NCBI GenBank assembly: GCA_025558095.1
Contig: JAIVFI010000001.1
Coordinates: forward strand, 115,001 to 175,000
Direction of reading: 5' to 3'
Source of the DNA: Hyaloraphidium curvatum
Lineage: Eukaryota; Monoblepharomycota; Hyaloraphidiomycetes; Hyaloraphidiales; Hyaloraphidiaceae
DNA: 60,000 nucleotides
Below the pieces are notes generated by a model, which was given only the letters and a program-made list of their open reading frames with translations, ran no database searches and was not told the DNA's origin. Shown here piece by piece: positions 8,845-54,037 of this stretch. Numbering within the stretch: the first letter of the stretch is position 1; each line of letters starts with the position of its first letter. Made by a program: the position numbers and the translations under genes.

Positions 8845-11800
8845 TCACTCCAACAAGCGGCCGCCCGACTCGACGCCCCCCCAGAAGTCCCCCGCCGCTC
8901 CGTCGTCGTCCCCCTCGTCCGCGCCGCCTTCGACGTCCACGTCCCGCGACGCAGGCCCTTCCTCCTCCTCCTCCTCCTCCTCGTCCTCGGGCGAGGGCGG
9001 CTTGGCCAGCTCCGCGGCGTTGGGCGCCCCCTCGGGCGGCACGGGACGCCAGCACGAGAGCAGCACCCTGTCGGGCTCGGACCCGACGTAGATGTCCTTC
9101 CCCTCCCGGTCCACCCGGATGAAGGCCGACTTGCGCGTCCCGGAACGCAGGCCGAAGGTGATGCCGGGGCAGCCGGCGCCGAGCGCCGGCCGGGCAAGGC
9201 CCGGCGTAGGGAGCCAGCACGCATCCGACTTGCGCTTGGGCTTGTCGGTCACCACGAGCTCGCTCGGGTCGTCCGGGCTCAGGGAGAGGTAATAGCCCGG
9301 CTTCTCGACCGACTCGAGGGTGAAGTGGTAGTTGGCCCCACAGATTGGCTTGAGCACCCTGAAGGCGGCCGACTTGTCCTTCTGCTGCTCGGGGATGTTC
9401 CCGCGCGCCAGCACGACCGTCCCGTCCTTGTCCGTGGTCAGGTAGGCCTTCTGCGGCATCCCCGTCGAGTGGAACGTGACCAGGTCGTCCAGGTTGATAG
9501 ACTCGGCGTTGATCTGCGGCTGGAAGCTCTGCACCTTGAGGTCCGCGCGCTTGCCGTCCTCGGGCACGCACGCCGTCACCCGGACCTTGCCCTTTTTGGT
9601 CGCCGTCATGCACTTGCCGTCGCTGGCCGTCGAGGCCATCACGACGTCCTCGAACGTGACGGGCGAGTCGAAGTCCGTGGCCACGGCGACGCCGGCGCTC
9701 TGGCACGACAGCTGACCGGTGCGGTTGTTGTACGTCCAGATGCCGTTCTGCACGTCCGCCAGGCAGGGCGAAAGGACAATGGAGGATTTGGCGTTGACCG
9801 ACAGGCACAGGTTGCCGTTCACCCGGAACGACTGGCCCTTTGGTTCGTTCCAAGACTAGATCGCGGGCGTGAGACGAGGCGTCGCAAAGCCGATCAGACG
9901 TCAGCAACCCACCATGAACATCGTCGCGCTGACCTTCTTCCGCAGCCGGCAAGGCGGTCCCTCGCGCGAAAACGCGCCGACGGTCGTCTCGCAGCTTAGG
10001 TACAGATCGTTCCCGAACTTGATGCGGAAGTCGTTGTCCTCGCCCTCGGGCATGCCGGGCGGCGCGCCGGGGTCGTAGCCGGGGAACAGCGCGGGCATGA
10101 CGGGGAGCTCCGAGGCGGAGATGTGCTGGCCTACACTGGCACCGGGATCGAGGGGATCGTCCTCCGCGGGCTTCTTGCGCGGCTTGCTTCTCGCCGGCTC
10201 CGAGTCCTCGTCGTCGGCGGCATCGTCGTCGCCGGCATCCCGCTTGCCCAGCTTGCGCTTCAGCAGGCGCTTCCGCCGGCGCTGCTCGAGGTGCAGCTCG
10301 ATGCCCTCCTCGGGCGTCATGTGCCGCGAGTCGTAGAGGATGGTGTCGTAGGCGTCCAGGAGGTCCCGCTTCTTGAAGCGGAAGTGTCCCGTGGGGAAGA
10401 ACTCGAGGTCCTCGAACTCGCGCTCGGCAAGGCGCATGAGCTTGGCGTGGTTGACGGCGCGCTGCTCGACGTTCGCCTTGAAGAAGTCAATGGCGGACTG
10501 GAGGAGGTCTGGAATGGAACGGTGTCAAGCGAGTCCATGCGCCTCCCGAACTAACCCACCATTGAAGTTGATGGTGAAGTCGATGTTGATCGAGGCGCCA
10601 AAGATCACGCCCTGGAACACGAGCCTGACCGACCCGCCCAGGAACCCGGATTTGAAGTCAGCGTCGAGCGACGCGCCGACCCCGACCTTGTCGATCCGGA
10701 TCATGTTGCGCAGTGCGTCGCCAATCATCTGGAAAAGTTTGCCGGCCGCGCGGACGACCGTTGAAAGGCCGTTGAGCACTGATGCACCGTGCAGCGTGAG
10801 ATTCAAATCGAAGTCCGCGAACTGCTCCCGCGCACCTCCTTCGGCCGCCTTCATGGCGCCGACCGCAATATCGAGAGCGCCTTGCGCAACCGTGCAGGCC
10901 GTCTGGCAGGCGCCGTTGATGATCTTGCCCGAGACGTAGTTCCAGCCCGTGCACACCCCCTGCTTGATCTTGTCGAAAGCCGAGATGACGACGGCCTTGA
11001 CCGGCTGGACGATTTTGTCGTCGACCCAATTCACCACCTTTTGGAAGGCCTTTTTCAGCACCCCCAGCCGCCTGACCAGCTCGTGGACGGGGGCATTCCC
11101 GACGACCGCGGTCTCGTAAAATGCATCCTCCCAGCTTTCGGATCTGGCCAACAGGCGGCGACGGCCGCACTTGACGTTGTCCGCGGCCTACGTGAACGGC
11201 CGTGAGACAAGACATAGGAACCCGGGCCGGCCTCTCCCACCTCGGCACACTTGACGGTGAAGTCGCAGGCATCCTTCTTCTTTGCTTCCACGTCCCGTCG
11301 CTTGGCCGCAACGTCGCCTTCCGCGTTGTTGAGCGTCTTTGCGCCTTCCTCGCACCAGGCAGAGAGCTGCTGGAAGACCTTGTCGACAAACTGGTTGAAC
11401 GACTGCATATTAAACTCGACATAGACCGAAAAGGCTGCAGCGTTGGCCAGTGGGTGCTTAGGCGAGCTAAAGAAGGCGGGCGCCCAGTCGGACCCACCAA
11501 GCCGCGCTCCGATGCTTGCGGTGAACTTGAAGTTCGCATCGAATAGGAAGTACTTGTTGTTAAACTCTGCGAGACGATTTGGTCAAGAGACCGGCCCGTC
11601 TGACGATGAGCGCGACGCACCGATGTTCCAATTCGTCGGGGTGATGGAAATCTGGGCGTTGATCTCGAAGAGGAGGACCTTGACGTAGCAGTGGAGCTCG
11701 ATCCTCATGTCCGTGATCTGGGCGTACTGCAGATTGACGAGGAAGTAGGGGCCGCGCGACTGGTCGGTCTTGCTGTAGAAAGCCTGGATCAGGCCTCCAG

Positions 11801-14800
11801 CGAGATTCAAGGGGCTGAGTTCGGCCTCGATCTTGAAGCCCTCGCCGGGGTTGACCTGGATCTCGCACTTGGCGGTGACGTCAAAGAGATTGAGGGTTCC
11901 TTTCAGGTCTGAAACAAGCAATGAGCTGCTAATGCTCGCAACGCGGGGGAACGGCGAGTGACCCACAGAATCGCATGGGGAACTCCTTGTTGGGCGCGAC
12001 ACATCCTCCCATGGGGCAGAACGAAATGGAAGTCTTGCCGGGAAAGCCAGAGTTGAGAATCGGGGCGGGGATCTTGTTCGGATCGGGCATCGTGTCGGTG
12101 AAGGCGGCAATGATGTGCTTGACGTCCAAGTTGTTGATCTCGCCGGCGAACCTGGCACGCAAACAAGGTCAACAGTGGCAGTCACGGTAAGGCAGCGAGC
12201 TACCGACCAGTTTCCCTGCGGGTTAGCTGGGTTCACAGAGACGTAAACTGCGCCGCCAATGCAGAGCGAGTTCAAGTCGAACTGTCCGGCCGGCGTGTAG
12301 CAGTTCTTGCCGATGCCAATCTCGCCCCCGATCAGGATCGAAGGCGCCCCGAGCGCGGCCGTGATGCCAATCTCGACAACGATATTGCCAACATTGAGCC
12401 GGTCCCAACCAAAAGCACGCTGCCAGATGCCTTTCATCGAGGCGCCGAGCTGGACGCTGGCGCCCTTGATGCCGATGTGGGCCTCGAGGAGCAGAGGCGG
12501 CTGCGACTTGTCGACGGCGATCTGCAAAGACCCGAACAGCATGATGGCCATCGACGGGAACGAGGCCGAGAACCCGACGGCTTTGAGCAACAGGCCGTTG
12601 GTGATCTGGATGTCCGAGACCGCGGCCGAAAAGGAGATGTCCGGCGGGTTAATGACCGCGTTGATCTGCAGGCCGGCGTTGGCCCCGAGAAGCTTCTTTA
12701 AGACGTCGCAGAAGCTGGATCCGGCGCAGTCGGGCGGCAGGCCCATGCGGACGTTCATGGTCAGGCCCCGCTTGAGCTCGGGGAGGTAGTCGAGGGGCGG
12801 GTCAAGGGCCATCGGTGTCCCGAGCAGGTTGACGTTGTTGGACGAAACGAGCAAGCCCATCTGTGCGTGACGGCAGTTGAGGATCTACGCGACATGTCAC
12901 AGCCCTTCAGAACACTCACCGACACCCCGGAAGCAACGAGGTTCACCCCGCCGGGCATCTTGAAGCTGGGCATCATCCTGGAAAGCAATGTCGTGAAGGC
13001 GTCGCCTCGGATGGCAAGCGCCAGAGAGCCTCCGAAAGCTCCGCCGTTCTGCTTGCCGGCGATGATCTGGAGCTTGGCGCCCGGCATGAACGAAGCCTCG
13101 CCTCCGACCCGGATGATGGCGTCGCCGCCGCCGAGTACGACCACGAGAGAAAAGTCGTTGATCTTGAAGTTCTTCAAGCCAGTGCTCTCGATGAGCGGGG
13201 CGACCGGTCCTGGGGGCGCCGTTCAGCCACTGTCCATTGAAACACCATCCAGATCGATACTCACCAGCAGGGAAGATCTCCGCAGCAAGGCCGGCAAGAA
13301 GCTTGCCCAGCTCCAGCGTCTCGGCGCGGGCGGTGATGATCCACTTGCCGGCCGAGCCAGGCGGCGCGCGGATGGCCTTCGCAGATGCCAGACTTCCCGG
13401 CGCCGCTGCCGAGCTGGGACGGGGTGTTGCCGGAGCCACAGCTTTCGCAGCACCCTTCTTCCGAAGGGCCTTAAACATCGAGGACCAATCACGCTCCGCC
13501 AGCCGCGGCGGGGAACGTTCCGCCAAGTACGCACTCTCGTTGAGGCCTCGCTTCCGAAGATGGCGCTGGTACATATGATGGTTGAGCTGCGCAAGCGGGA
13601 GGCCGTAGAAGGAGAAAGGATGGTCGTCCGAGATGGACGGGTAAGAGACCCAGGTCGACATGTCAGGCTCGTGGGAAGGCAAGTCGATCAAGGATTCGTC
13701 CTCGTCCGGGCCCACGGACGGTCCGAAACCTTCCCAGTCCCGCGGGACAAGGTGCAAAGTACGCCGCCCGTAGTCGTCGAAGGAAATCATATCCGAGCCT
13801 CCCGTCGGCGAGCGTACGATCGTCGTGGTCAGCGGGGCGCCGCCAACCGTCCACTGGCCCTCGAGCTTAAGGTCCAGCCGTCGTTGAGCACTGAACGGGT
13901 TCGCAATCGCGACCATGATCGTCGCGCTGTCCAGCTTCAGGGGTACGACGTCGCTTTTGATCAACTTGTCGGCGTCAGGAATCAGAGCACGCAGGGTAAG
14001 CCGTGTCGTGCACCCCGAGCCTCCGGGCATGCAGAAGGTGAAGACGATGTCCTTGATCTGAATGGTGAGCAGCGCGGCCAGGCCCGACGAGAGCACGGGA
14101 ATCGGGGGTAGGGAGTCGACGACCGAGTCCAGCTTGACGGCGGACAGCATCGATCGCACGGTGATGGGTTCCGACGCAGCCGATAGCTTCAGCGGTATGA
14201 CGTCCGTCGCTCCAATCAGCGGAAGGGCGAAGGATATCCCCTTTTTGAACAGCGGCAGCTGCGCGGCGCCCCCGAGCTCGAACGACGCCAAGCCCCCGGT
14301 GTAGGCGGCGGTGGCCGTGATGTTGACGAGCCCGAAATCGTCCGCGAGCTTGAGGTCCTTGACGCTCATGACCACGCGCGCGCTCTCCACCGTCGTCGCG
14401 TCCGCCATGTCGAACGACACCGAGCTCAGCTTGGCGATGTCCGGAAGGTATCCAAACACGTCGGGCAGGATGAAGGCCGTGTCCCCAAGCACGATCTTGA
14501 CCAACGGCCCGGCCACCTTGAACGACAGGTCCATCCCCGGCACGCGGAGTGCGAACCGGCGGGCGCTCGTTGCCGAGCACGAGAGCTGGATCTCGCCGCG
14601 CTCGACCGGCGCCATCGCGGCCCGGACCTTCTCCGGCGCCGCGGCCTCGGGCGCGATCTTGCCCGGCTGGTCGACGATGGTCTGCCCGCTGGAGCTGGGA
14701 ACGGAGAGGTCGCGCGAAGCCGTGCCCTTGCAGACCGCCAGGCCCTCGGGGTTGGGATTCGTGGGGAAGGCGCAGGCCGTGCCCTGGCATTTGCCCTTGA

Positions 14801-16449
14801 CGAGGCCGACCGGGCAGCAGAAGCCGCCCCGCTCGTCGCCGAACGGGACGGAGCCCGACGGGCAGCTGAACCGGCTCCCGCCCTTGCAGAGCTCTGAATC
14901 CTCGGCGTCGGGGTTCTGTGTGTGCGCGAGGTTCAGCCCAGTCGTCGTGTATGAAAGCCCAACGGTCGCCACGTACCCTCGGGAACGCGCACGAATCGCC
15001 GCTGCACTTGCCGTTGCTGACCTTGCCGTTGCAGCAGAAGGCACTTTCGGCGGTGCCGACTTTGGAACAGGTCAGCTTCGACAACTCCAAAGACGTGAAC
15101 GAGAACCCACATGGCGTCGTCCCGCTCGGGCAGATGAAGTTGAGCATCTTGCGCGGGTCCACGGGCCCGAAGCTGCCGTCGTTGGCCGGCAGCTTTGCCG
15201 GCGCCGGTGCGTTGCTCCGGAAGGCATCGGTCAGCGACGGCGGCGGAGCGGTCTCGGCGCCGCAGGTGGGGACGTTGGCCCCGAGTCCCCTGCGCGTGTT
15301 CTGGTGGATGGGTCAGCGACGTAGTTCGGAGACAAGGCCGGAATCCGCCCACCCCGGATATCGCACACATTTCCCCCGCGCACGCCATGCCCCCGGGCAC
15401 GACCGTCCCCTTGCAGCAGTACCCGCCGAGCACGTCGCCAAACGCCTTCTGGCCGATTGGGCACTGGATCTCCGAGCCGCCCGTGCAGTACTGGAACGTG
15501 GCGCCCGGCCTGCGCGGCGTCTTGGGGAAGGCGCAGTGGGCCCCCGGGCAGCTGGCTCCATCCAGGGGCACCGAGCAGCAGAAGCCGCCCGACTCGGCGG
15601 CGCCGTAGGCAAAGGTGTTGGGCGGGCACTGGTACGTCCGCGGGCCCTGCATCCATTCCTGCATCTGGCGCGTAAAGTCCACCTCGGGTGAGAGCTGCGG
15701 GGGCGTCGAAGGCGGGACAAAGCCGGCGAGGTTGAGCTTGGGGGCGACGAAGCCGCTGAGCTTCTTGAAGAATGAGGCGCCCATGCGCCTGCTCAGCGCG
15801 TGCCGGTTGGCGGCGCCGTCGCGCATGACGAGCCGGCGCCGCCCTGCTCCGCGCTTGCCCGTGCGCCGCAGGCGCAAGCGCGCTCTCCGCTCCTCCGAAT
15901 CCTCCTGGGCCTCGGCTTCTTCCCCGGGTTCGGCATTCGCTTCCGGTTGGGCCTTCTCCGCTTCGGCCCCGCCTTCCGAGTCGCTAGCGGCGCCGTCGTC
16001 GTCCCCGCCACCCACGTCACCCTCCTCGGCATCGGGACCGAACCCGATGATGATGCGCTTCCCCGCGAGCGGCAGGTCCTTGATCGGACCCGTCACGCAG
16101 CCCAGCGCCGACACAAGCTTGGGCGGCAGCGAGCTGCCCACCGAGATGCTGGAAAGGTTCCTGACCACCAGCACGGCCGGGTTGGCTTCGGCGTCGTCCC
16201 CGCGCACGCTCGCGCACGCGTTGGCGATGGCGCCCTTGTCCTCGCCGGTGAGGCCCTTGATGGAGTCCTGGGCCGAGGAGCAGAGGGCGACGGCGATGCC
16301 GTCCGAGAGGCCTTGGTGCCCAACTTTTGCACATTATCACCCATTTTGTTTTCGGCTGCACCGGCCACATACGCGGCAAGTATACCCACGAGCGCGAGGA
16401 GCAGTGCCGCCGGAAGGCCCCGCCGCCCCGTCGGCCGCCCACGCGACAT
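8845..16449 (-). CDS. giant modular secreted protein, copy 1 (14 exons, no acidic tract)
   Basis: Left-most member of the family described in full at 36701-45022. Exons on the minus strand: 16449-16362, 16311-15353, 15300-14977, 14915-13265, 13209-12920, 12860-12208, 12151-11967, 11908-11621, 11566-11498, 11434-11241, 11187-10836, 10778-10560, 10508-9913, 9855-8845. They total 6879 nt (2292 aa) with every junction in frame. It differs from the others at the N-terminus: the signal peptide (LLLALVGILAAYVAG) is spliced almost directly to the helical domain (GLSDGIAVALC), so the long Glu/Pro acidic tract is missing. The first junction is the least certain; a donor at 16385 joined to 16323 also keeps the frame. 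A shorter Glu-rich stretch after the helical domain remains. The block 12449-13348 is indistinguishable from the same part of copy 2, introns included. Confidence 0.75.
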
Positions 16450-16852
16450 TGCGGCCTTCCTAACAAATTGAAGCTCGGGCCGCGGCCATGGCGGCCGCGG
16501 AAGGTGTGGACGGGCGGGGGCCACGCCACGGGAAATCCCACCCTGGACCCGTCGAAACCCCACGAGCCAGGTGGCCCGGATCTGTTTCACCGCCATCGAG
16601 CGCGAAAGTCTTGTCGATCCAACCAATAGGAACGCGGAAAATCATCGCATGAGGTTCATGAACACGAGATGTCGACTGTGAGCGCGGGTGGAGCTTTGCA
16701 TCTTGGCCGCTTCACACGCTCATCCACCGCTTTCAACAGGGACGAATCCACATGAGAGAAGCCGACACACTTTCTTTCCAACTCTCTTCCGCGGATCCAC
16801 CATGCAACAGCTAACGTCCACGAACAACCATTCCCGAGCATTCCGATGCCCA
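16450..16852. promoter_or_regulatory. intergenic spacer between giant genes 1 and 2
   Basis: Contains the 3' flank of copy 2 and the promoter of copy 1. It is clearly homologous, in inverted orientation, to the spacer 45023-45414 between copies 3 and 4, including the block around 16560-16640 and the segment next to the upstream gene's 3' end (about 16680-16760). This conservation of non-coding sequence shows the two tandem pairs share an ancestor with the same junction. Confidence 0.7.
16623..16627 (+). promoter_or_regulatory. conserved CCAAT box upstream of giant gene 1
   Basis: CCAAT about 175 bp upstream of the start codon at 16449. The same motif, in the same position and orientation relative to the gene, lies upstream of copy 4 (45243-45247). 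CCAAT boxes bind the HAP/NF-Y complex in fungi; use here is inferred. Confidence 0.4.
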
Positions 16853-19800
16853 TCACTCCTCCGGCCCACCGCCCGACTCGACGCCGCTCCAAAACTCCCC
16901 GGCGGCACCGTCGTCGTTGTCGCCCTCATCCGCACCCCCAGCAATGTCCAGGTCCCGCGACAACGCCACTTGTTCCTCCTCCTCCTCGACGATCGGGCTG
17001 GCCAGCTCCGCGGCGTTGGGCGCCCCTTCGGGCGGCACGGGACGCCAGCACGAGAGCAGCACCCTGTCGGGCTCGGACCCGACGTAGATGTCCGTGCCCT
17101 CCTGGCTCACCCGGATGAAGGCGGACTTGCGCGTGCCCGACCGCAGGCCGAAGGTGATCCCCGGGCAGCCGGCGCCGAGCGCGGGCCGGGCAAGGCCCGG
17201 CGTGGGGAGCCAGCAAGCGTCCGACTTGCGCTTGGGCTTGTCCGTAATCACGAGCTCGCTTGGGTCGTCGGGGCTCAGGGAAAGGTAGTAGCCCGGCTTC
17301 TCGACCGACTCGAGGGTGAAGTGGTAGTTGGCCCCACAGATTGGCTTGAGCACCCTGAAGGCGGCCGACTTGTCCTTCTGCTGCTCGGGGATGTCGCCGC
17401 GCGCCAGCACCACCGTCCCGTCCTTGTCCGTGGTCAGGTAGGCCTTCTGCGGCATCCCCGTCGAGTGGAACGTGACCAGGTCGTCCAGGTTGATAGACTC
17501 GGCGTTGATCCGCGGCTGGAAGCTCTGCACCTTGAGGTCCGCGCGCTTGCCGTCCTCGGGCACGCACGCCGTCACCCGGACCTTGCCCTTTTTGGTCGCC
17601 GTCATGCACTTGCCGTCGCTGGCAGTGGAAGCCATCACTACGTCCTCAAGGGTGACCGGCGAGTCAAAGTCCGTGGCCACGGCGACGCCGGCGCTCTGGC
17701 ACGAGAGCTGGCCGGTCCGGTTGTTGTACGTCCAGATGCCGTTCTGCACGTCCGCCAGGCAGGGCGAAAGGACGATGGAGGATTTCGCGTTGACCGACAG
17801 GCACAGGTTGCCGTTGACGCGGAACGACTGGCCCTTGGGCTCGTTCCAGGACTAGATCGCAGGGAGTGAGCGAGGCGCCTCAAAGCCGATCCGGCGGCAA
17901 CCACCCACCATGAACATCGTCGCGCTGACCTTCTTCCGCAGCCGGCAAGGCGGTCCCTCGCGCGAAAACGCGCCGACGGTCGTCTCGCAGCTAAGGTAGA
18001 GGTCGTTGCCGAACTTGATCCGGAAGTCGTTGTCCTCGCCCTCGGGCATGCCGGGCGGCGCGCCGGGATCGTAACCGGGGAAGAGGGCGGGCATGACGGG
18101 GAGCTCCGAGGCGGAGATGTGCTGGCCGGCATTGGCCCCGGGGTCGAGGGGATCGTCCTGCGCGGGCTTCTTGCGCGGCTTGCTTCTCGCCGGCTCCGAG
18201 TCCTCGTCGTCGGCGGCATCGTCGTCGCCGGCATCCCGCTTGCCCAGCTTGCGCTTCAGCAGGCGCTTCCGCCGGCGCTGCTCGAGGTGCAGCTCGATGC
18301 CCTCCTCGGGCGTCATGTACCGCGAGTCGTAGAGGATGGTGTCGTACGTGTCGAGGAGGTCCCGCTTCTTGAAGCGGAAGTGTCCCGTGGGGAAGAACTC
18401 GAGGTCCTCGAACTCGCGCTCGGCGAGGCGCATGAGCTTGGCGTGGTTGACGGCGCGCTGCTGCACGTGGGCCTTGAAGAAGTCGATGGCGGACTGGAGG
18501 AGGTCTGGAATGGAACGGTGTCAAGCGAGTTCGACGCGCCTCGCAAATCAACCCACTGTTGAAGTTTATGGTGAAGTCGACGTTGATCGAGGCGCCGAAG
18601 AGCACGCCCTGGAACACCAGCCTCACCGACCCGCCCAGGAAACCGGACTTGAAATTGGCGTCGAGCGAGGCCCCGACACCGACCTTGTCTATCCGGATGA
18701 GGGAACGGAGCGCGTTGCCGATCATCTGGAAGAGCTTGCCGGCGGCGCGAACGACCGTCGAAAGGCCATTAAGCACTGCTCGGCGGAACGGCGTTAGGAT
18801 CAGATCATGTGCACGAGAGCCCACTACAGCGCACCTCCTTCGGCTGCCTTCATGGCGCCGACTGCAATATCGAGGGCACCCTGAGCGACCGTGCAGGCCG
18901 CCTGGCAGGCGCCGTTGATGATCTTGCCCGAGACGTAGTTCCAGCCCTTGCAGACGCCCTGCTTGATCTTGTCGAAGGCCGAGACGACGGCGGTCTTGAC
19001 CGGCTGGACGATGTTCTTGTTGATCCAGTCCCCCGCCTTTTGGAAGGCCTTTTTCAGCTTCCCCAGCCGCCTGACCAGCTCGTGGACTGGGGCGTTTCCG
19101 ACCACTGCGGTCTCGTAAAATGCATCCTCCCAGCTTTCGGATCGAGCCAACAGGCGGCGCCGGCCGCACTTGACCTTGTCCGCGGCCTGCGTGAACGGCC
19201 GTAAGACATTATGCATAGACACGCGCGGGCGTCTCCTACCTCAGCACACTTGACGGTGAAGTCGCAGGCATCCTTCTTCTTTGCTTCCACGTCCCGTCGC
19301 TTGGCCGCAACGTCGCCTTCCGCGTTGTTGAGCGTCTTTGCGCCTTCCTCGCACCAGGCAGAGAGCTGCTGGAAGACCTTGTCGACAAACTGGTTGAACG
19401 ACTGCATATTGAACTCGACATAGACCGAAAAGGCTGCAGCGTTGGCCAGCGGGTGCTTAGGCGAGCTAAAGAGAACGAGCGACGAGTCGGACCCACCAAG
19501 CCGTGCTCCGATGCTCGCAGTGAACTTGAAGCTCGCGTCGAATATGAAGTACCTGTTGCTGAATTCTGCGCGAGATTTCGTCAAGAGACCGGCCCATCTA
19601 CCGCTGAGCGCGACGCACCGATGTTCCAACTCGTCGGGGTGATGGAAATCTGCGCGTTGATCTCGAAGATGAGGACCTTGACGAAGCAGTGGAGCTCGAT
19701 CCTCATGTCCGTGATCTGGGCGTACTGCAGATTGACGAGGAAGTAGGGGCCGCGCGACTGGTCGGTCTTGCTGTAGAAAGCCTGGATCAGGCCTCCAGCG

Positions 19801-27091: not shown

Positions 27092-27211
27092 GGTCTTGAT
27101 GAAAAAACCAGCAATGGGACTTGGACCGCAAGTGGCTTGATTCACCATTGTATCAAGCGGGCAGACCAACAACAGACAGATCAGACAGAGCCACAACGAC
27201 CTTCTCAGGCC

Positions 27212-30968: not shown

Positions 30969-31022
30969 GCGCGGCGGCAAGAAGTAGGCCAGACCAGATC
31001 GCATAGACGACCTCCTACACAA

Positions 31023-33484: not shown

Positions 33485-33586
33485 GCTTCACGCGGATATC
33501 GCGCTGGATGCCGTTGATTTAGCTCGATTCGCGCGTTTCTGCGACCATAGTGCCACTTCCGTTGCTCCGGAGCGCGATTCTCCGGA

Positions 33587-35263: not shown

Positions 35264-35297
35264 ATTATGTACAGGATCGGCGGGGAATCGGCGGCCT

Positions 35298-36023
35298 TCA
35301 CTCCTCCGCGGCCGGTTCCGCGTCCATCTCGGTGTCTTTGCTGAGCGATGATTCTTCGTACGCCTCGAGGAGCTTCTTCAGGTCCTCGGTGGTGAAGTCT
35401 TGCTCGAGAGCGGTCTCGGAGGATTCGTCGGCGCTCTCTGTGACAATGGGTGAGAACAGTGCCTGTTAACCCAGTGCGGGAAACCCACCGGCGAGGATGA
35501 CGGCGGGTCCGTTGACGGCCAAAACCTTGTGCTCGGCGGCAAGTCCCGGTCCCGTGAGAATCTTCAGTCGGAAATCGGGCGCGCAACGGGCGCAACCACG
35601 GAAAGCGGCGCGGGCGGAACGGGCAAGGCGTGTGAGCCATTCTCACACGTCCCTGGCCGCCGCCCGGCGCCCGCTTGCCTTGGAGGCGACCGTATTGCGC
35701 GGCATGCCCGCGTTGGCCGCGGAATCCGTGATGACCGTCAGGCGCGGGAAGCCGTGCGCGGCCCAGCCGGCAGCGACGCCGGCTTCCGTCCGCGGCGGGA
35801 AGCCGTTGCCGCCATTTTGCTCCGTCTTGTCTTTCGTAAAGAGCTTCTGAATGGCCTGCGTGTGTTCTGCGGCGCCGAACTTGCTGATGACGGGCAGGCC
35901 GACGTCTTTCGCCGGGCCGTCCACCGGGACGTAGACGGCCTTGTACAGCTGGCGACTCGTCGACGAGCCCCGCTTCCGCGGGGCGCCGGCGGGCGTGGGA
36001 GACTTTGGTTCGGAGGCTGGCAT
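35298..36023 (-). CDS. small orphan protein (3 exons)
   Basis: Proposed exons 36023-35649, 35561-35489 and 35437-35298 give 195 aa with all phases kept. The 87 nt first intron contains an in-frame TGA, so reading through would truncate the protein. The N-terminus is basic and Ser/Pro-rich (SPTPAGAPRKRGSS), followed by QLYKAVYVPVDGP, a KLFTKDK segment, a Gly/Ala-rich part, a short hydrophobic strand (HKVLAVNGPAVILA) and an acidic C-terminus ending in EMDAEPAAEE that is predicted helical (TTEDLKKLLEAYEES). I do not recognise a family. The charge split (basic N-terminus, acidic C-terminus) would fit a nucleic-acid- or ribosome-associated protein, but that is speculation. It is convergent with the endoglycoceramidase gene (34 bp between stops). 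Confidence 0.6.
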
Positions 36024-42700: not shown

Positions 42701-45022
42701 GGCAGACGGCGCCGTCACCTCCTCGCCCGGTCCGAGTCGTGGGAAGAATCCTTCTACGACAACGCTGTCGTGGCGTCGTCGGGCAACCACGAGCTGATCC
42801 GGCGCTGGTCCGACTTCGTCAACGCCTTCAAGAAGGCGGGAGAGTGGATCGACAACAAGATCATCCAGCCGGCGAAGGAGTTCTTCGTGAGCACATTCGA
42901 CAAGATCAAGCAGGGCGTGTGCGCGGGCTGGAACTACGTCTCGGGCAAGATCATCAACGGCGCCTGCCAGGCGGCCTGCACGGTCGCGCAAGGCGCGCTT
43001 GATCTTGCGGTCGGTGCCATGAAGGTGGCGGAAGGAGGTTTGTACTGCTTCGGCTTGCCCATTTCCTTTCGTGGACATTGACGGTCGCGCCGCGCAGTCC
43101 TGAATGGTCTTTCGCAAATCACCCGTGCCGCCGGCAAGCTCTTCCAGATGATTGGCGACGCGCTGCGGAACATGATCCGGATCGACAGGGTGGGCATCGG
43201 CGCCGCGCTCGACATCAACTTCAAGACCGGCTTCTTGGGCGGGTCGGTGAGGCTGGTGTTCGAGGGCGTGATCTTTGGCGCCTCGATCAACATCGACTTT
43301 ACCATCGACTTCAACAGTAAGCCCCTGCGTTGCCTCGCGGGTGAGCGGCGTTGACGTTTGGCACCTCCAGACCTCCTCCAGTCCGCCATCAACTTCTTCA
43401 AGGCGAACGTAGAGCAGCGCGCCGTCAACCACGCCAAGCTCATGCGCCTCGCCGGGCGCGAGTTCGAGGACCTCGAGTTCTTCCCCACCGGCCACTTCCG
43501 CTTCAAGAAGCGTGACCTTCTCGACACCTACGACACCATCCTCTACGACTCGCGGTACATGACGCCCGAAGAGGGCATCGAGCTGCACCTCGAGCAGCGC
43601 CGGCGGAAGCGCCTGCTGAAGCGCAAACTCGGCGAGCCGGACGTCGGGGACGACGACTGGGCCGCGCAGCCGTTGAAACGCCGAGACGAGGGCAAGCGCA
43701 GCAAGCCGGCCGAGTCGGATCCCCTCGACCCCGGTGCCAATGCCGGCCAGCACATCTCCGCCTCGGAACTGCCCGTCATGCCCGCGCTGTTCCCCGACTA
43801 CGACGCCGGCCCGCCGCCCGGCATGCCCGAGGGCGAGGACAACGACTTCAGGATCAAGTTCGGCAGGGACATGTACCTCAGCTGCGATACCACCGTCGGC
43901 GCCTTCTCGCGCCAGGGAGCTCCGTGCAGGCTCAGGAACAAGGTCGGCGCGACGATGTTCATGGTGGGTGGTTGCCGCCGGATCGGCTTTGAGGCGCCTC
44001 GCTCACTCCCTGCGATCTAGTCCTGGAACGAGCCCAAGGGCCAGTCGTTCCGCGTCAACGGCAACCTGTGCCTGTCGGTCAACGCCAAATCCTCCATCGT
44101 CCTTTCGCCTTGCCTGCAGGACGTGCAGAACGGCATCTGGACGTACAACAACCGCACCGGCCAGCTCTCGGCCCAGAACGCCGGCGTCGCCGTTGCCACG
44201 GGCTTCGACGCGCCGATCACGCTCGAGGACGTGGTGATGGCGTCCACTGCAAGCGACGGCAAGTGCATGACGGCGACCAAAAAGGGCAAGCTGCGCGTGA
44301 CGACCTGCGTGCCCGAGGACGCCAGCCGGGCGGACCTCAAGGTGCAGAGCTTCCGGCCCCAGATCAACGCCGAGTCGATCAACCTGGACGACCTGGTCAC
44401 GTTCCACTCGACGGGGATGCCGCAGAAGGCCTACCTGACCACGGACAAGGACGGGACGGTGGTGCTGGCGCGCGGCGACATCCCCGAGCAGCAGAAGGAC
44501 AAGTCGGCCGCCTTCAGGGTGCTCAAGCCGATCTGCGGGGCCAACTACCACTTCACCCTCGAGTCGGTCGAGAAGCCGGGCTACTATCTCTCCCTGAGCC
44601 CCGACGACCCGAGCGAGCTCGTGATTACGGACAAGCCGAAGCGCAAGTCGGACGCGTGCTGGCTCCCCACGCCCGGCTTGGCCCGGCCCGCGCTCGGTGC
44701 CGGCTGCCCCGGCATCACCTTCGGTCTGCGCTCGGGCACGCGCAAGTCTGCCTTCATCCGGGTCAACCAGGAGGGCACGGACATCTACGTCGGGTCCGAG
44801 CCCGACAGGGTGCTGCTCTCGTGCTGGCGTCCCGTGCCGCCCGAGGGGGCGCCCAACGCCGCGGAGCTGGCCAAGCCGCCCGCGCCCGAGGACGAGGAGG
44901 AGCAGGTTGCGGTGTCGCGGGATCTGGACATCGCAGGGGGTGCGGACGAGGGCGACGACGACGATGGTGCTGCGGGGGAGTTTTGGAACGGCGTCGAGTC
45001 GGGCGGTGGGTCGGACGAGTGA
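36701..45022 (+). CDS. giant modular secreted protein, copy 3 (15 exons)
   Basis: Exons 36701-37367, 37425-38539, 38592-38778, 38832-38914, 38968-40609, 40664-40953, 41013-41665, 41721-41905, 41965-42252, 42306-42374, 42434-42627, 42680-43037, 43098-43316, 43371-43963, 44021-45022: 7545 nt, 2514 aa, all in phase. Approximate order: signal peptide (1-40); Glu/Pro tract (95-245); helical domain with DSIKGLTGE (250-345); basic site RDGDATPHSLGRR (395-410); four six-Cys modules of the type FGDxxGGFCC (500-740); hydrophobic beta-rich region (775-1080); dibasic RKRG (1135); two further beta-rich segments (1205-1700) such as GGEASFMPGAKLQIIAG and AHIGIKGASVQLGA; coiled coil/helices (1725-1910); charged linker (1985-2180); ricin-like region (2182-2480) beginning VNGNLCLSVNAKSSIVLSPC; acidic tail. 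Secretion is inferred; function unknown. Confidence 0.82.
36999..37470. repeat. low-complexity purine-rich tract (acidic coding repeat)
   Basis: Nearly uninterrupted GAG/GAA codons with CCG, GCC and GAC, encoding the EEEEPAEEEEPAE-type tract of copy 3. A 57 nt intron without any stop (37368-37424) interrupts it. Slippage-prone; its length and composition differ in each family member. Confidence 0.8.
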
Positions 45023-45414: not shown

Positions 45415-48400
45415 ATGTCGCGCGGGCGGCCGGCGGCGCGACGGGGCCCTCCGCCGGCGCTGCTCCTCGCGCTCATCGGATTCGTCGCCCTCGCGCTCGC
45501 CGCGGACCTATGGCCTCCCGCGCTGCGGACCGCCGACGCGCTGCCCGCCGCGCCGATGCGGAAGGACGCCGCGCTGCCGCGTGCGCGCCCGGCTGCGTTG
45601 CCGCGCATGCTGCCGCGGGCGGCAAAGGGCGCCGCGCACGGAGCAAAGGGCAAGGAGGTCGTCGAGGTAGAGGAGCCCGAGGAAGAGCCCGAGGGCGACG
45701 ATGACAGTGGTGCGGGGGACGACGACGACGGGGCGGGAGACGACGACGGGGCGGGAGACGACGACACCGGGGACGAAGTCCAGGACGCGGTCGAGGAGGA
45801 GGAGGCGCACGCGGACGACCTCGCCTCGAAGCTCGCCAAGCTGCAGGAGGATCTCAAGGACATCGAGGAGGACGCGGACGAGGCCGCGGGAGACGATGAC
45901 GGGGAATCTGGCGAGGGGACCGCAGAGGAGGGAGAGGAAGAGGGCGAGGCAGGTGCGTGAGGGACCGTCTGGACGCTATCTCGGTGCCGGAAAGCTCACG
46001 CCGTGCGCATGCAGAGGAAGAGCCGTCCGACTCCGTGAAGGAACTTGGCGACGATGACGCTGCCACGGACGAATCGTCGGGAGACGCTTCTGAAGGGCAG
46101 TCCGCCGACGATGACGCTTCGGAAGAGGAAGCTGCCGAAGACGAATCCGCGGGAGACGACGACTCCGCGGAGGAAGAAGAACCCGCCGAGGAGGAGGAAG
46201 CCGGGGACGAGGAAGAGCCTGCGGAAGAGCAAGAACCCGCTGAAGGTGCGAGCTCGCAGCGTTGTGCGAGCGCCGAACTCACAATACCACGCCCTTGCAG
46301 AAGCATCCGACGACGACGACGAGGAGGAAAAGGAGCCGGACGAATCCGACCCGACGGCCGCGCTGGCCGCCCTCCTCGGCGTCGGGCCCGACAAGGCCCG
46401 CTCGCTGCTCCGCGGCGGCTCCAGCGGCATGTCCCTCGCCTTGTGCTCCTCAGCCTCGGTGTCCATCAAGGGCCTCACGGGCGAGGAGAAGGGCGCGATC
46501 GCCAGCGCCTGCGCGAGCGTGCGCGGGGACGATAACGAGGTGGACCCGGCGGTGCTCGTGGTGCGGGACGTGGCCGAGCTCGACTCGCTGCCGCCCGATC
46601 TGGCGGAGGCGCTGGGGTGCGTGGCGAGCCCGATAAAGGACCTGGCGCTGGGGGGCAAGAAGGTCATCATCGGGTTCGGGCCGGAAGGGGATGCGGATTC
46701 GGGGGACGGAGGTGACGACGATGCCAGGAGTGGTGACGATGCCGCTGGCGACGATTCCGACTCTGGGGGTGGCGACGATTCGGATGCTGAAGCTGGCGAA
46801 GATTCCGGCGCCAAAGCTGGCGACGGCGCCGATGCCGAAGCTGGGGACGATACCGACGCTGAAGCTGGCGACGATTCCGCTGCGGACGCTGAAGACGATC
46901 CCGACGCCGGCGACGACGATGTCGGGGAGCAGGAAGAAGCTGGCGGGGACGACGAGGAACGGAAAGTGCGCCCCCGCCGGCGACGCAGCAACCGATCCGG
47001 AATCAGCGGGCATCCGCGCCGCCTCATGACATTGGACAGGGACTCCAAGCGGCACTCGCTGGGCAGGCGGCTGGGCAAGGGGCTGCAGAAGAAGATGCAG
47101 CAGATCTCGCAGAACCAAGTCGAGCGGATCATCTCGTCGCCTGCTGTCCCCCCCTCGACGCCGCCCGGCATCGTCGGCAACGGCTTCCTCGCACCCAAGA
47201 TCAACATCTGGAACCCCAAGTCGCTGCTGTCGCCCGAAATCGCGGCCGTGCAGGACTATGCCCGCCAGGTCACGGAATGGGCCGACACGCCGCGGACCTA
47301 CCAGTGCCCGCCCAGCACCTTTGCCTACGGCGACGTTGGCACCGGCGGCTTCTGCTGCTCCGTCGCGTTGCAGGGTAACACCTGCCCGGGGGCCAGCTGC
47401 GCCTTCCCCAAGACCCCTCGCAAGCCCGGCGCCACGTTCAACTACTGCACCGGCGGCTCGCAGATCCCGTGCGCGGCCATGGGGCAGTACGCATTTGGCG
47501 ACGTCCTCGGGGGCTACTGCTGCAAGGGAAGAGTGTCGTCGAACGGCATGGAGTGCAAGGGCGACGTGTGTGCCATACCTGGGGTGGGTGGTGCCCCTTG
47601 CTTTCCGCATCCCGTTCCTGACATCCGTCGCAGAACACGCGCAAAGGGCTCGCGGGGGACTTCCCGACATGTCCGAGTGCTGCGTCGCAGGGATCATTGA
47701 GCGACGCTTTCGGAAGTACGGCACCGTCAAAGATGCCGCCCAGCGACGGCAGCTTCGGGCCAGTCGACGTGCGGAAGCTGCGCAACTTCGTCTGCCCGGG
47801 GGGAACGACGCCATGTGAGCTCGCTGGCGCCCATTGCCGCACGTTCCCTGACTTCCGTCCATCCAGATGGCGACGACAAGGAAGCCTTCTGCTGCAACGG
47901 CAAAGTCACCAACGGCAAGTGCAGCGGTGACTCGTGCGCGTTTCCTAGGGTGAGTATTGCCCTTCCCTCTTGAACCCAGATTTGACCGGCCACCTAGAAC
48001 CCGAGCGCCAAAGATTCGGACCTCTGCAAGGGTGGCAGTCGGTTCTCGTGCCAGCTGGGCTCCGTTCCCTTCGGCGACGAACAAGGCGGTTTCTGCTGTC
48101 CGACTGGCCTTGTCAAGGGCAAATGCCAGGGCACCACGTGCGCCTTCCCCACGAACCCGGCACCGAACGGCCTCGCGATCTGCAAGGGCACGGCGTCGCG
48201 CGACCTCTCCGCTTCCGACGGGCAGACCATCGTCGACCAGCCGGGCAAGATCGGGCCCGACGCCGCAACGCCCGACAAGGTGGCGGCCGCAATGGCGCCG
48301 GTCGAGCGCGGCGAGATCCAGCTCTCTTGCTCGGCCAAGAGCTCCCGCCGTTTCGCACTCCGCGTTCCGGGGATGGACCTGTCGTTCAAGGTGGCCGGGC

Positions 48401-51400
48401 CGCTGGTCAAGATCGTGCTTGGGGACACGGCCTTCATCCTGCCCGACGTGTTTGGATACCTTCCGGACATCGCCAAGCTGAGTTCGGTGTCGTTTGACAT
48501 GGCGGACGCGACGACGGTCGAGAGCGCGCGCGTCGTCATGAGCGTCACGGACCTCAAGCTCGCGGACGAGTTCGGGCTCGTCAACATCACGGCCACCGCC
48601 GCCTACACCGGGGGCTTGGCGTCGTTCGAGCTCGGGGGCGCCGCGCAGCTGCCGCTGTTCAAAAAGGGGATATCCTTCGCCCTTCCGCTGATTGGAGCGA
48701 CGGACGTCATACCGCTGAAGCTATCGGCTGCGTCGGAACCCATCACCGTGCGATCGATGCTGTCCGCCGTCAAGCTGGACTCGGTGGTGGACACCCTGCC
48801 CCCGATCCCCGTACTTTCGTCGGGTCTGGCCGCGCTGCTCGCCGTGCAGATCAAGGACATCATCTTCACCTTCTGCATGCCGGGCGGGTCGGGGTGCACA
48901 ACGCGGCTGACGTTGCGGGCCCTCATACCCGACGCCGACAAGCTCTTCAAGAGCGACGTCATCCCCCTAAAGCTGGAAAGCGCGACGATCATGGTCTCGA
49001 TTGCGAACCCCTTCAAGGCCGATCGGCGGTTGGACGTCAAGCTCCAGGGGCAGTGGACTGTTGGGGGCGCGCCGCTGACCACGACGATCGTGCGCTCGCC
49101 GACGGGAGGCTCGGATATGATTTCCTTCGACGAGTACGGTCGGCGTACTATGCACCTTGTCCCGCGGGACTGGGAGGGCTTCGGACCGTCCGTGGACCCG
49201 GACGACGCCGCGGACGAGGATTCGGAGGACCAATCCTTCCTCGACTTCCCTCCCCACGAGCCGGACATGTCGACCTGGGTCTCTTACCCGTCGATCTCGG
49301 ACGACCACCCCTTCTCCTTCTATGGCCTCCCGCTCGCGCACCTCAATCACCACATGTACCAAGGACACCTCCGGAAGCGGGGCCTCAACGAGACGGCGTA
49401 CTTGGCGGAGCGTTCTCCGATGCGGCTGGCCAAGCGTGGCGCGAAACGTCCAGCGCAGGCGAAGCAAGCTCCAAGCTCTTCGGCGGCGTCCGCCAGTCCA
49501 GCAACGTCGAAGCCGATACGCGCGCCGCCCGGATCGGCCGGCAAGTGGATCATCACCGCCCGAGCAGAGAGTCTGGAGCTGGGCAAGCTGCTTGCCGGTA
49601 TTGCAGCCGACATTTTCCCATCCGGTGGGCTCTGTTTTCTACAAGGCTTCAACGGGAACCCCTAACTCGCTCCCCAGGACCGGTCGCGCCACTCATCGAG
49701 AGCACGGGCTTGAAGAATTTCCAGATCAACGATTTCTATCTCGCTGTGGTGATTGGTGGCGGCGACGCCATTATCCGTGTCGGAGGCGAGGCCTCGTTCA
49801 TGCCCGGCGCCAAGGTCCAGATTATTGCCGGCAGGCAGAACGGCGGGGCTTTTGGCGGCTCGCTTGCGCTCGCCATTCGAGGCGATGCCTTCACGACGCT
49901 TCTATCCAAGATGATTCCGAGTTTCCAGATGCCGGGCGGAGTGAACCTCGTCGCGTCTGGGATGTCGGTGAGTGATCTCAAGGGGATTGATCCCAGTCCA
50001 ATCCTGAGCTGCCGCCGTGCCCAGATGGGGCTGCTCGTGTCGTCCAACAACGTTAACCTGGTCGGGACCCCTTTGGCACTCGACCCGCCCCTCGACTACC
50101 TCCCCGAGCTCAAGCGGGGCCTGACCATGAACGTTCGCATGGGTCTGCCGCCCGACTGCGCCGGGTCCAACTTTTGCGACGTCTTGAAGAAGCTTCTCGG
50201 GCCTAACGCCGGCCTGCAGATCAACGCGGTCATAAACCCGCCGGACATCTCGTTTTCGGCCGCGGTCTCCGACATCCAGATCACGAACGGCCTGCTCCTC
50301 AAGGCCGTCGGATTCTCGGCCTCCTTCCCGTCGATGGCAATCATGCTGTTCGGCTCACTGCAGATTGCTGTCGATTCGAAGCAGCCGCCACTTCTGCTTG
50401 AGGCCCATATCGGCATCAAGGGCGCCAGTGTGCAGCTGGGCGCGACTATGAAGGGCATCTGGCAGGGCGCCTTTGGTTGGGACCGGCTCAACGTGGGCAA
50501 CATCGTTGTCGAGATTGGCATCACAGCCGCGCTGGGCGCCCCTTCCATCCTGATCGGGGGCGAAATCGGCATCGGCAAGAACTGCTACACGCCGACCGGG
50601 CAGTTTGACCTCAACTCGCTGTGCATTGGCGGTGCTGCCTACGTCTCGGTGAATCCCGTGGACCCGAAGAGCAACTGGTTGGTAGCGCGTTTGCCGCTGT
50701 GCAGCTCATGCCAAAGTTCCTGTCCAGGTTCGCCGCTGAAGTCAACAACCTCGACATCAAGCACATCATCTCCGCCTTCACCGACACAAACCCCGATCCA
50801 AACAAGATCCCCCAACCCATTCTCAACTCTGGCTTCCCCGGCAAAACCTCCATCTCGTTCTGTCCCCTGGGGGGCTGCGTCGCGCCTAACAGGGAGTTTC
50901 CGATGGGCTTCTGTGGGTGCTCGTGCGTCTGCGCGCGGCGCTTTGGACGCTGACGCCTTCTTCCAACTCAGACCTCAAGGGGACGCTCAACATCCTGGAC
51001 GTCACGGCCAAGTGCGAGATCCAGGTCGATCCCGGCAACGGCTTCAAGATCGAGGCCGAGCTGAGCCCGATCAACCTCGCGGGCGGCCTGATCCAGGCTT
51101 TCTACAGCAGGAGCGACCAGTCGCGCGGGCCCTACTTCCTTGTCAACATACAGTACGCCCAAATCACGGATATGAAGATCGAGCTCCACTGCTACATCAA
51201 GGTCCTCGTTTTCGAGATTAACGCGCAAATCTCCATCACCCCAACGAATTGGGTCATCGGTTCGTCGCGCTGAGGCTCGCCTCGAATGGCCCACCGACGA
51301 CACCTCTCCGCAGACTTCACCAACAAATACTTCATCTTCGACGCGAACTTCAAGTTCAGCGCGAGCATCGGTGCCCGATCACGTGAGTTGGAACACACGA

Positions 51401-54037
51401 CCGGCATTCGCTTCAGCTCAAGCTCGTTCTTTGCAACGCGGCAGAGTTCTCGGTCTACGTTGAGTTCAGTATGACATCGTTCAGCCAGTTCGTCGAGAAG
51501 ATCGTCCAGCAACTCTCCGCCTGGTGCGAGGAAGGCGCCAAGACGCTGAGCAACGCGGAAAGCGATGTCGCGGCCAAGCGACGGGACGTGGAGGAGAAGA
51601 AGAAGAGCGCCTGCGATTGGATGACCAAGTGCGCAGAGGTACATACCTGTCCCGTGCTTCCCTGCGTCCCGGCTCATCTTCTCGTGCAGGCCGCGGAGAA
51701 TGTCAAATGCGGCAGACGGCGCACCCGCCTCCTCGCCCGGTCCGATGCCTGGGAAGAAGCCTTCTACGAAGGCGCCAGCATCGCGCCCTCGGACAACAAC
51801 GTCCTTCACGCTCTTGCTCGACTGTTCCGGAGGTGGAGCGCTGCCGGAGATTGGCTGAATGACAACATCGCCAAGCCCATCGACAAGGCCGTGATCCAGC
51901 CCGTGAAAGAGGCCGTCGTGAGCACGTTCGACAAGATCAAGAACGGTGTCTGCAAAGGCTGGAACTACGTGTCGGGCAAGGTCATCAACGGTGCCTGCCA
52001 AACGGGGTGCACGGTCGCTCAGGGTGCCCTCGATCTCGCCGTGGTTGCCATGAAGGGAGCCGAAGGAGGTTCGTTCTGCTGCGTGCCCCCGATTCTTTTG
52101 CCGTGGACGCTGACCGCTGCACGTCGTCAGTCCTCAATGGCCTTTCGCAGGTTACCCGTGCCGCGGGCAAGCTCTTCCAGATGCTCGGCAACGCGATGAA
52201 GAACATGATCCGGATCGACAGGGTAGGGGTAGGCGCGTCGCTGGACGTCAACTTCAAGAACGGATTCCTCGGCGGGTCGGTGCGGTTGGTGTTCGAGGGC
52301 GTCATCTTTGGCAACTCGATCAACGTCGACTTCACCATGAACTTCAACGGTGAGTTCCCTTCAGGTCGGCCGACGGCGCCCATCTGACTTCTCCTCTTCC
52401 AGACCTCCTCCAATCCGCCATCGACTTTTTCAAGCAGCAGGTGCAGCAGCGCGCCGTCAACCACGCCAAGCTGATGCGCCTCGCCGAGCGCGGGCTCGAC
52501 GACCTCGAGTTCTTCCCCACGGGCCACTTCCGCTTCAAGAAGCGGGACCTGCTCGACACGTACGACACCATCCTCTACGACTCGCGGCACATGACGCCCG
52601 AAGAGGGCATCGAGCTGCACCTCGAGCAGCGCCGGCGGAAGCGCCTGCTCAAGCGGAAGCTGGCCGAGCCGGACGTCGAGGACGAGGCGGACGTGGCCGA
52701 CGAGCCGTCGAAGCCGTTGGAGCCGAGGAGCAAGCCGGCCGGGTCGGACCCCCTCGACCCGGGCGCCAACGCCGGCCAGAAGATCTCGGCCACCGCGCTG
52801 CCCGTCGTGCCCGCGCTGGTTCCCGGGTACGACCCCGGCGCGCCGCCGGGCATGCCCGAGGGCGAGGACAACGACTTCAGGATCAAGTTCGGGAACGACC
52901 TTTACCTCAGCTGCGACACCACGGTCGGCGCCTTCTCGCGCCAGGGACGGCCGTGCAGGCTGAAGAGCAAGGTCAGCTCGACGATGTTCATGGTGGGTGG
53001 TTGCCGCCGGATTCGGTTCAGCTCGCCTCGCTGACGTGCCCGGATCAAAGTCCTGGAACGAGCCAAAAGGCCAGTCGTTCCGCGTCAACGGCAACCTGTG
53101 CCTGTCGGTCAACGCCAAATCCTCTATCGTCCTTTCGCCTTGCCTGCAGGACGTGCAGAACGGCATCTGGACGTACAACAACCGCACCGGCCAGCTCTCG
53201 GCCCAGAACGCCGGCGTCGCCGTTGCCACAGGCTTCGACGCGCCGGTCACCCTTGAGGACGTAGTGATGGCTTCCACTGCCAGCGACGGCAAGTGCATGA
53301 CGGCGACCAAAAAGGGCAAGCTGCGGGTGACGGCGTGCGTGCCCGAGGACGGCAAGCGCGCGGACCTCAAGGTGCAGAGCTTCCAGCCGCGGATCAACGC
53401 CGAGTCGATCAACCTGGACGACCTGGTCACGTTCCACTCGACGGGGATGCCGCAGAAGGCCTACCTGACCACGGACAAGGACGGGACGGTGGTGCTGGCG
53501 CGCGGCGACATCCCCGAGCAGCAGAAGGACAAGTCGGCCGCCTTCAGGGTGCTCAAGCCAATCTGCGGGGCCAACTACCACTTCACCCTCGAGTCGGTCG
53601 AGAAGCCGGGCTACTACCTTTCCCTGAGCCCCGACGACCCAAGCGAGCTCGTGATTACGGACAAGCCCAAGCGCAAGTCGGACGCGTGCTGGCTCCCCAC
53701 GCCGGGATTGGCCAGGCCGGCGTTCGGGTCGGGGTGCCCTGGGATCACCTTTGCCCTGCGATCGGGCACGCGCAAGTCGGCCTTTGTGCGCGTGAACCAG
53801 GACGGCACGGACATCTACGTCGGCGCCGAGACCGATCGGATGCTGCTCTCGTGCTGGCGGCCGGTGCCGCCCGAGGGGGCGCCCAGCGCGGCGGAGATGG
53901 CCGGCCCCGGTTCGGACGAGGACGGAGGGGGGCCGGCGTCGCGGGATGTGGACATCGAGGGCGGGGCGGCGGACGACGGGGACGATGACGACGGGGCGGC
54001 GGGGGAGTTTTGGAACGGGGTGGAGGGCGGGGCGTGA
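45415..54037 (+). CDS. giant modular secreted protein, copy 4 (16 exons)
   Basis: Exons 45415-45952, 46015-46245, 46301-47583, 47634-47814, 47867-47949, 47998-49624, 49678-49967, 50025-50677, 50728-50912, 50972-51259, 51314-51382, 51445-51638, 51690-52068, 52131-52349, 52403-52992, 53051-54037 sum to 7797 nt (2598 aa), in phase throughout. The signal peptide (PPPALLLALIGFVALALAADLWP) most resembles that of copy 1. The acidic tract is less Glu/Pro-dominated than in copies 2 and 3: mixed Asp/Glu/Gly/Ala (GDDDDGAGDDDGAGDD). After the helical domain there is an extra Asp/Ala/Gly repeat (about 386-468) made of units like DAEAGDD. The helix-rich exon is 21 nt longer than in copy 3. Cysteine module 2 carries a one-residue insertion (CAAMGQYAFGD). 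Confidence 0.8.
46690..46940 (+). repeat. Asp/Ala/Gly coding repeat inside giant gene 4
   Basis: Imperfect tandem units of roughly 24-30 bp based on GAAGCTGGCGACGATTCC, coding for repeats such as DAEAGDDTDAEAGDDS. Absent from copies 1-3, where this place holds a short Glu-rich patch. Confidence 0.75.

What the first reader, a model, noticed from the sequence alone, without database searches (positions are those of the whole stretch)
8845..54037. Four intact copies of a giant modular secreted protein of unrecognised architecture
All four copies can be spliced to continuous frames of 2292-2598 codons with matching exon sizes, so they are under selection as protein. The combination is: signal peptide, long acidic tract, small helical domain, four six-Cys modules, about 900 residues of hydrophobic beta-rich sequence, coiled coil, charged linker and a ricin-like C-terminus. 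I know of no described family with it. It takes up more than half the window and could be a cell-surface, adhesion or matrix system expanded in this lineage.
Basis: partly seen in the sequence, partly recalled or inferred. Interest (0 to 1): 0.88.

Follow-up and report, generated by a model that had tools for sequence, protein, structure and literature searches.

The report
Unrecognised family of giant fungal secreted proteins
A GC-rich fungus carries at least 13 genes, four of them in this window, for very large proteins that share a conserved core matching no family I could search; most are predicted to be exported, and the core is joined to different sugar-binding-type modules, which suggests a cell-surface or matrix adhesion system that nobody seems to have described.

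Summary
The four genes are real. Reconstructed with an independent gene finder, they read as open frames of 2276, 2495, 2473 and 2547 codons with GT-AG introns. They are under purifying selection (dN/dS 0.22-0.29 overall, mostly 0.06-0.15 in the core and C-terminal domains). One correction: copy 1 has lost the acidic tract and most of its signal peptide, so only three of the four copies show the full architecture. The family is genome-wide: 13 loci carry the core, plus one C-terminal fragment. It has two subfamilies. Subfamily A, the window type, ends in two tandem beta-trefoil-like domains, one ricin-B-like and one AbfB-like. Subfamily B has no trefoils and starts, in the one member scanned, with a LamG lectin-like domain. 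The shared core (about 290 + 520 residues plus a helical part) matches nothing in Pfam, NCBIfam, PDB, GTDB genomes or IMG/VR; PHROGs was tried on one half only, also without a match. Best reading: a lineage-expanded scaffold that displays glycan-binding modules outside the cell, in adhesion or matrix. Function is inferred. AlphaFold2 on window-only rows failed (pLDDT about 30). Other fungi could not be searched, so novelty is provisional.

The parts
8845..16449 (-). Copy 1: 13 exons, 2276 aa; acidic tract and most of the signal peptide missing
16853..25233 (-). Copy 2: 15 exons, 2495 aa, full architecture
36701..45022 (+). Copy 3: 16 exons, 2473 aa, full architecture
45415..54037 (+). Copy 4: 16 exons, 2547 aa, full architecture; weak AAAG acceptor at the last intron, and a 57-nt intron (49968-50024) that is also open when read through
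37487..37819 (+). Copy 3 small helical domain 1
38249..39204 (+). Copy 3 Cys region, four six-Cys modules (24 Cys)
39205..40068 (+). Copy 3 betaA (core part 1)
40546..42251 (+). Copy 3 betaB (core part 2, landmarks)
42436..43180 (+). Copy 3 helical / coiled-coil domain 2 (7 Cys)
43832..44362 (+). Copy 3 trefoil 1, ricin-B-like
44363..44845 (+). Copy 3 trefoil 2, AbfB-like
13809..14672 (-). Copy 1 betaA
11622..13328 (-). Copy 1 betaB
9031..10044 (-). Copy 1 two trefoil-like domains
21795..22658 (-). Copy 2 betaA
19620..21326 (-). Copy 2 betaB
17027..18040 (-). Copy 2 two trefoil-like domains
48235..49098 (+). Copy 4 betaA
49561..51258 (+). Copy 4 betaB
52861..53875 (+). Copy 4 two trefoil-like domains

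Best explanation
These are members of a fungal gene family of large, mostly secreted, modular proteins. Shown by sequence: a signal sequence (three of the four window copies), a conserved core (betaA, charged linker, betaB, helical Cys-containing part), four six-Cys modules, and two C-terminal trefoil-like domains of glycan-binding kind; in a second subfamily the trefoils are absent and a LamG lectin-like domain sits at the N-terminus of the member scanned. Inferred: the protein enters the secretory pathway. Six-Cys modules and core are disulphide-stabilised. The acidic tract gives a cation-rich or repulsive stalk, and dibasic (KR/RR) clusters in the linkers may be cut by a Kex2-type protease. 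The core acts as a rigid scaffold that presents the lectin-type modules outside the cell, where they bind glycans of the fungus's own wall, a substrate or another cell. Several paralogues with different modules would give different binding specificities. No membrane or GPI anchor was found, so attachment would be through glycan binding or disulphides.
For: Open frames, GT-AG introns and recurring exon sizes. dN/dS 0.10-0.13 betaA, 0.10-0.14 betaB, 0.06-0.16 trefoils, against 0.4-0.6 in the N-terminal acidic parts and 0.5-0.7 in helical domain 1. N-terminal hydrophobic segments of mean hydropathy 2.1-2.3 in copies 2-4 and no other segment above 1.9. Ricin_B_lectin match in 7 of 7 C-termini (best E 1.9e-5) and AbfB in 4 of 7 (best E 0.013), on separate stretches. 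The best PDB profile hit is an arabinofuranosidase, its better-scoring stretch (354-383) lying, as I understand it, in the AbfB domain (E 0.8, suggestive only). Lobes of trefoil 2 resemble each other above all 25 shuffles, as do two lobes of trefoil 1. Laminin_G_3 at E 4.9e-20 in subfamily B with the same core. Dibasic clusters are densest in linkers, for example 8 sites in the 125-aa linker before the trefoils and none in the acidic C-tail. Paralogues at nine further core-bearing loci.
Against: Both trefoil matches lie below Pfam's own cut-offs where both were listed (copy 1: 22.7 against 29 bits; 16 against 22.8). No structure: AF2 failed. No transcript, localisation or binding data. Copy 1 has an impaired export signal. 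No classical fungal adhesin feature (GPI signal, long Ser/Thr repeats) in the window copies.
Confidence: 0.5

Rival explanations
1. The hydrophobic beta-rich core is a lipid- or hydrophobic-cargo-binding shell (lipoprotein- or TULIP-like in action), and the lectin modules dock the particle to cells or walls: a secreted carrier rather than an adhesin.
For: The core is unusually rich in short alternating hydrophobic strands, with hydropathy up to 1.9 but no clear transmembrane segment outside the N-terminus. Weak internal repetition of a strand motif (hhalign probability 60-63%).
Against: No profile match to any lipid-carrier family in Pfam or PDB. The domain order does not resemble large lipid-transfer proteins as I know them.
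Confidence: 0.17
2. A secreted effector or toxin-like protein that uses the trefoils or LamG domain to find a target cell and the core to act on it.
For: Lectin modules joined to a large unknown body, multi-copy family and possible Kex2-type cleavage sites are compatible with it. Copy-to-copy change is concentrated in the acidic, linker and helical 1 parts.
Against: No match to any toxin or enzyme family in the window copies above chance. Core and trefoils are strongly conserved between copies, not diversifying.
Confidence: 0.12
3. A non-catalytic scaffold for wall or polysaccharide processing, working with the neighbouring glycosidases and deacetylase.
For: GH26, GH5 and polysaccharide deacetylase genes lie in the same window; AbfB and ricin-B-type domains commonly ride on glycosidases (family knowledge).
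Against: No catalytic domain or docking module found. The neighbours of the other family loci were not examined, so linkage is unproven.
Confidence: 0.12
4. Pseudogenes, mobile-element remains or a gene-model artefact.
For: Copy 1 is damaged at its 5' end and C21 holds a C-terminal fragment. Models are computed, not transcript-based.
Against: Open frames over more than 2200 codons in four copies, dN/dS well below 1, recurring exon sizes, and paralogues at 51-60% and 23-30% core identity.
Confidence: 0.03

Closest known systems
Ricin-type beta-trefoil lectin / CBM13 (Pfam PF00652)
   Same: All 7 C-termini tested match weakly (best E 1.9e-5); two lobes of trefoil 1 are repeats of one another
   Different: Below the Pfam cut-off in copy 1 and copy 3; only one W-containing lobe motif (NGIWTY); attached to a body with no known relatives
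AbfB domain / CBM42-type beta-trefoil (Pfam PF05270; 3akf)
   Same: Motif of the type ...AAFRVV..G...(H)FTLESV..PG(Y/F)YL; three repeated lobes; weak matches in 4 of 7 members
   Different: Below the Pfam cut-off (16 against 22.8 bits); no arabinofuranosidase domain in the protein
Laminin_G_3 / LamG-like lectin (Pfam PF13385)
   Same: Subfamily B member on C10 carries a clear LamG domain (72.6 bits) before the same core
   Different: Absent from the window copies; the combination with this core is not in the libraries searched
Plasmodium LCCL/lectin adhesive-like proteins (LAPs; PMC11285972)
   Same: Large secreted modular proteins combining lectin-type domains; analogy in kind only
   Different: No LCCL domain found in the window copies; organism and core unrelated
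Classical fungal adhesins (Flo, Als, Epa; from general knowledge)
   Same: Possible role in adhesion; expanded paralogues; tandem copies
   Different: No GPI signal and no long Ser/Thr repeats in the window copies; different ligand modules

Membership tests
Ricin_B_lectin (PF00652), trefoil 1 | Score above Pfam's curated cut-off (29 bits) | tested here: not met
   22.7 bits in copy 1, 18 bits in copy 3; 7 of 7 members match at E up to 5, best 1.9e-5
Ricin_B_lectin (PF00652), trefoil 1 | Three repeated lobes with QxW-type motifs | tested here: inconclusive
   Lobes b and c are repeats (hhalign 20.2 against shuffle maximum 10.5), lobe a is not detected; only one W-type motif seen
AbfB (PF05270), trefoil 2 | Score above Pfam's curated cut-off (22.8 bits) | tested here: not met
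   16 bits in copy 1; 4 of 7 members match at E up to 5, best 0.013
AbfB (PF05270), trefoil 2 | Three-fold internal repeat | tested here: met
   All three lobe pairs above all 25 column shuffles, lobes chosen by eye
Laminin_G_3 (PF13385), subfamily B | Score above Pfam's curated cut-off (27.6 bits) | tested here: met
   72.6 bits, E 4.9e-20, in the C10 member; the C8 and C34 members were not scanned
Fungal GPI-anchored adhesins | C-terminal GPI or transmembrane anchor | tested here: not met
   Acidic C-tails; the only clear hydrophobic segment is N-terminal (hydropathy scan, no dedicated predictor)
LCCL/LAP proteins | LCCL domain | tested here: not met
   hmmscan of copy 3 finds only the weak ricin-B match
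Any described family, core domain | Profile match to a curated family or solved structure | tested here: not met
   betaB: no Pfam match at E up to 5, no NCBIfam match below 0.19, best PDB E 0.031 to AopB over 55 residues, judged chance; betaA: no Pfam or PHROGs match
Any described family, core domain | Homologues in other fungi or eukaryotes | not testable with these tools
   No eukaryotic sequence collection available; prokaryote and viral scans negative

The most novel reading that the evidence does not exclude
The core is a new protein fold or domain family, specific to one fungal lineage, that serves as an interchangeable scaffold for different lectin modules, in effect a fungal extracellular-matrix or adhesion system built independently of known ones.
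Probability: 0.3. Interest if true: 0.8.

Novelty: new variant of a known kind. Interest (0 to 1): 0.52.

Why it matters
Large multi-domain adhesion and matrix proteins are best known from animals and alveolates. A 13-locus fungal family in which one conserved unknown core is combined with either ricin/AbfB-type trefoils or a LamG domain would show an independently assembled extracellular binding system. It would also give a concrete new domain family for annotation, structure determination and comparison across fungi.

Tried and rejected
AlphaFold2 on betaA and on the C-terminal exon, using only the four window copies as rows: mean pLDDT 29.9 and 33.2, meaningless, so no fold search was run. 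Pattern scans of 84,980 prokaryote genomes with profiles of betaB and betaA, and of IMG/VR with betaB and with the C-terminus, found no relatives; the Cys-module profile could not be used. tblastn against plasmids gave two chance-level hits. PDB best for betaB was AopB at E 0.031 over 55 residues, taken as chance. Identifying the organism by rRNA failed: 5.8S family and 18S pattern absent from the assembly or withheld; a search for radial-spoke genes was uninformative. Literature searches found no description of such a family. The idea of two duplicated halves in the core gave only weak support (62%). Early automatic gene models contained errors (missing start of copy 1, an out-of-frame acidic linker and a mis-set last exon in copy 4), corrected by frame inspection.
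Full report
What is in the window. The window is G000:C1:115001-175000 of a 31.9-Mb, 55-contig assembly, GC 0.59-0.74 in 2-kb windows. It belongs to a fungus: chitin synthase genes score up to 609 bits, and a polysaccharide deacetylase, GH5, GH26, NIPA and DUF2855 genes lie beside the finding. The lineage could not be fixed, because rRNA is missing from the assembly or withheld.

Gene models. I wrote a small dynamic-programming gene finder (codon log-odds, GT-AG signals) and corrected its output by frame inspection. Copies 1 and 2 lie on the minus strand, copies 3 and 4 on the plus strand, two tandem pairs facing away from each other around about 11.5 kb of unrelated genes. The final models are 2276, 2495, 2473 and 2547 aa, each one open frame. 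Exons of 290, 653, 185 and 288 nt recur at identical size in all four copies. There is no transcript evidence; boundaries in the acidic and basic linkers and around the Cys modules are the least certain.

Selection. Pairwise dN/dS (Nei-Gojobori) is 0.22-0.29 over whole genes. By region it is 0.10-0.13 (betaA), 0.10-0.14 (betaB) and 0.06-0.16 (trefoils), and higher in the acidic parts and helical domain 1. Copies 1 and 2 have dS 0.095 in betaB but 0.33 in betaA and 0.42 in the acidic/basic linker, which suggests local gene conversion (inference).

Copy 1 is not intact at its 5' end. The acidic tract is gone, and the best in-frame start gives a short hydrophobic stretch joined to the helical domain through a poor acceptor. 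Copies 2-4 have clear N-terminal signal sequences.

Domain layout (copy 3, residues): signal sequence and acidic tract 1-243; helical domain 244-354; acidic/basic linker 355-497; four six-Cys modules 498-763 (24 Cys); betaA 764-1051; charged linker 1052-1169; betaB 1170-1686; helical/coiled-coil region 1687-1897; short beta part 1898-1971; basic linker with dibasic clusters 1972-2096; two trefoil-like domains 2097-2415; acidic tail.

The C-terminus. Of seven members, all match Ricin_B_lectin weakly (in copy 1 in the first half; best E 1.9e-5) and four match AbfB weakly (in copy 1 in the second half; best E 0.013). A profile search of PDB brings up the arabinofuranosidase 3akf first, at a non-significant E of 0.8; the better-scoring stretch (354-383) lies, as I understand it, in its AbfB domain. 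Splitting by eye into lobes and comparing profiles, all three lobe pairs of trefoil 2 and one pair of trefoil 1 exceed every one of 25 column shuffles. Formal membership fails the Pfam cut-offs where scores were listed, so I say trefoil-like.

The family. Searching the genome with betaB finds the core at 13 loci: four here, C22, C38, three on C3 (two of them a near-identical inverted pair), and C10, C34 and two on C8 (also near-identical). The search works in both directions: a C8 member's core finds C22 at E 1e-24 and copies 1-4 at about 1e-16. A C-terminal fragment lies on C21. C22 and C38 share the layout but no Cys module was found there. The C8/C10/C34 subfamily shares 23-30% identity in betaB with the rest, no trefoil match was found in it and, in the C10 member, it begins with a clear Laminin_G_3 domain (E 4.9e-20) followed by a Thr-rich stretch. 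The Cys modules were found only in core-bearing genes.

The core. BetaB has no match in Pfam at E up to 5 and none in NCBIfam below 0.19; its best PDB hit is judged chance. BetaA has no match in Pfam or PHROGs. Scans of prokaryote genomes (betaB, betaA) and viral contigs (betaB) found no relatives. A strand motif recurs weakly within it (62% hhalign probability). Structure prediction was possible only with four near-identical rows and failed.

Interpretation. The same core is combined with two different carbohydrate-binding-type arrangements (C-terminal trefoils, or an N-terminal LamG domain), behind an N-terminal export signal and with disulphide-rich modules, and no catalytic domain and no anchor were found. 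The most economical reading is an extracellular scaffold that presents lectin modules, in adhesion or matrix (confidence about 0.5). A hydrophobic-cargo carrier, a lectin-targeted effector and a wall-processing scaffold remain possible. Which cells or glycans are bound is unknown.

Novelty. No described family was found in the libraries and the literature searched. But no eukaryotic sequence database was available, and lineage-specific large secreted proteins without Pfam domains are not rare in fungi (general knowledge). I therefore rate it a new variant of a known kind (modular lectin-type extracellular proteins) with a possibly new core domain.

Noticed in passing
25772-36023, both strands: Between the two gene pairs: DUF2855 protein (E 7e-76), LRR-protein-kinase fusion, GH5 glycosidase with GH5 C-terminal domain, polysaccharide deacetylase and NIPA-type transporter.
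   Followed up: partly
5498-6835, minus strand: GH26-like glycosidase gene next to copy 1.
   Followed up: no
562-826 and 2697-2961; 55550-55849 and 56092-56391: Two pairs of 100%-identical direct repeats of 265 and 300 nt outside the gene family.
   Followed up: no
G000:C3:219-236 kb (L024, L025) and G000:C8:261-290 kb (L039, L040): Near-identical inverted pairs of family members, indicating recent inverted duplication or gene conversion.
   Followed up: partly
Copy 1 / copy 2 (8845-25233): Synonymous divergence is patchy (0.095 in betaB, 0.33 in betaA), pointing to local gene conversion between the tandem copies.
   Followed up: partly
G000:C21:203951-204913 (L041): C-terminal trefoil fragment of the family on another contig; the core was not found there and the automatic model joins it to unrelated sequence.
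   Followed up: partly
54266-58740, plus strand: Gene with an HMG-box beside copy 4.
   Followed up: no
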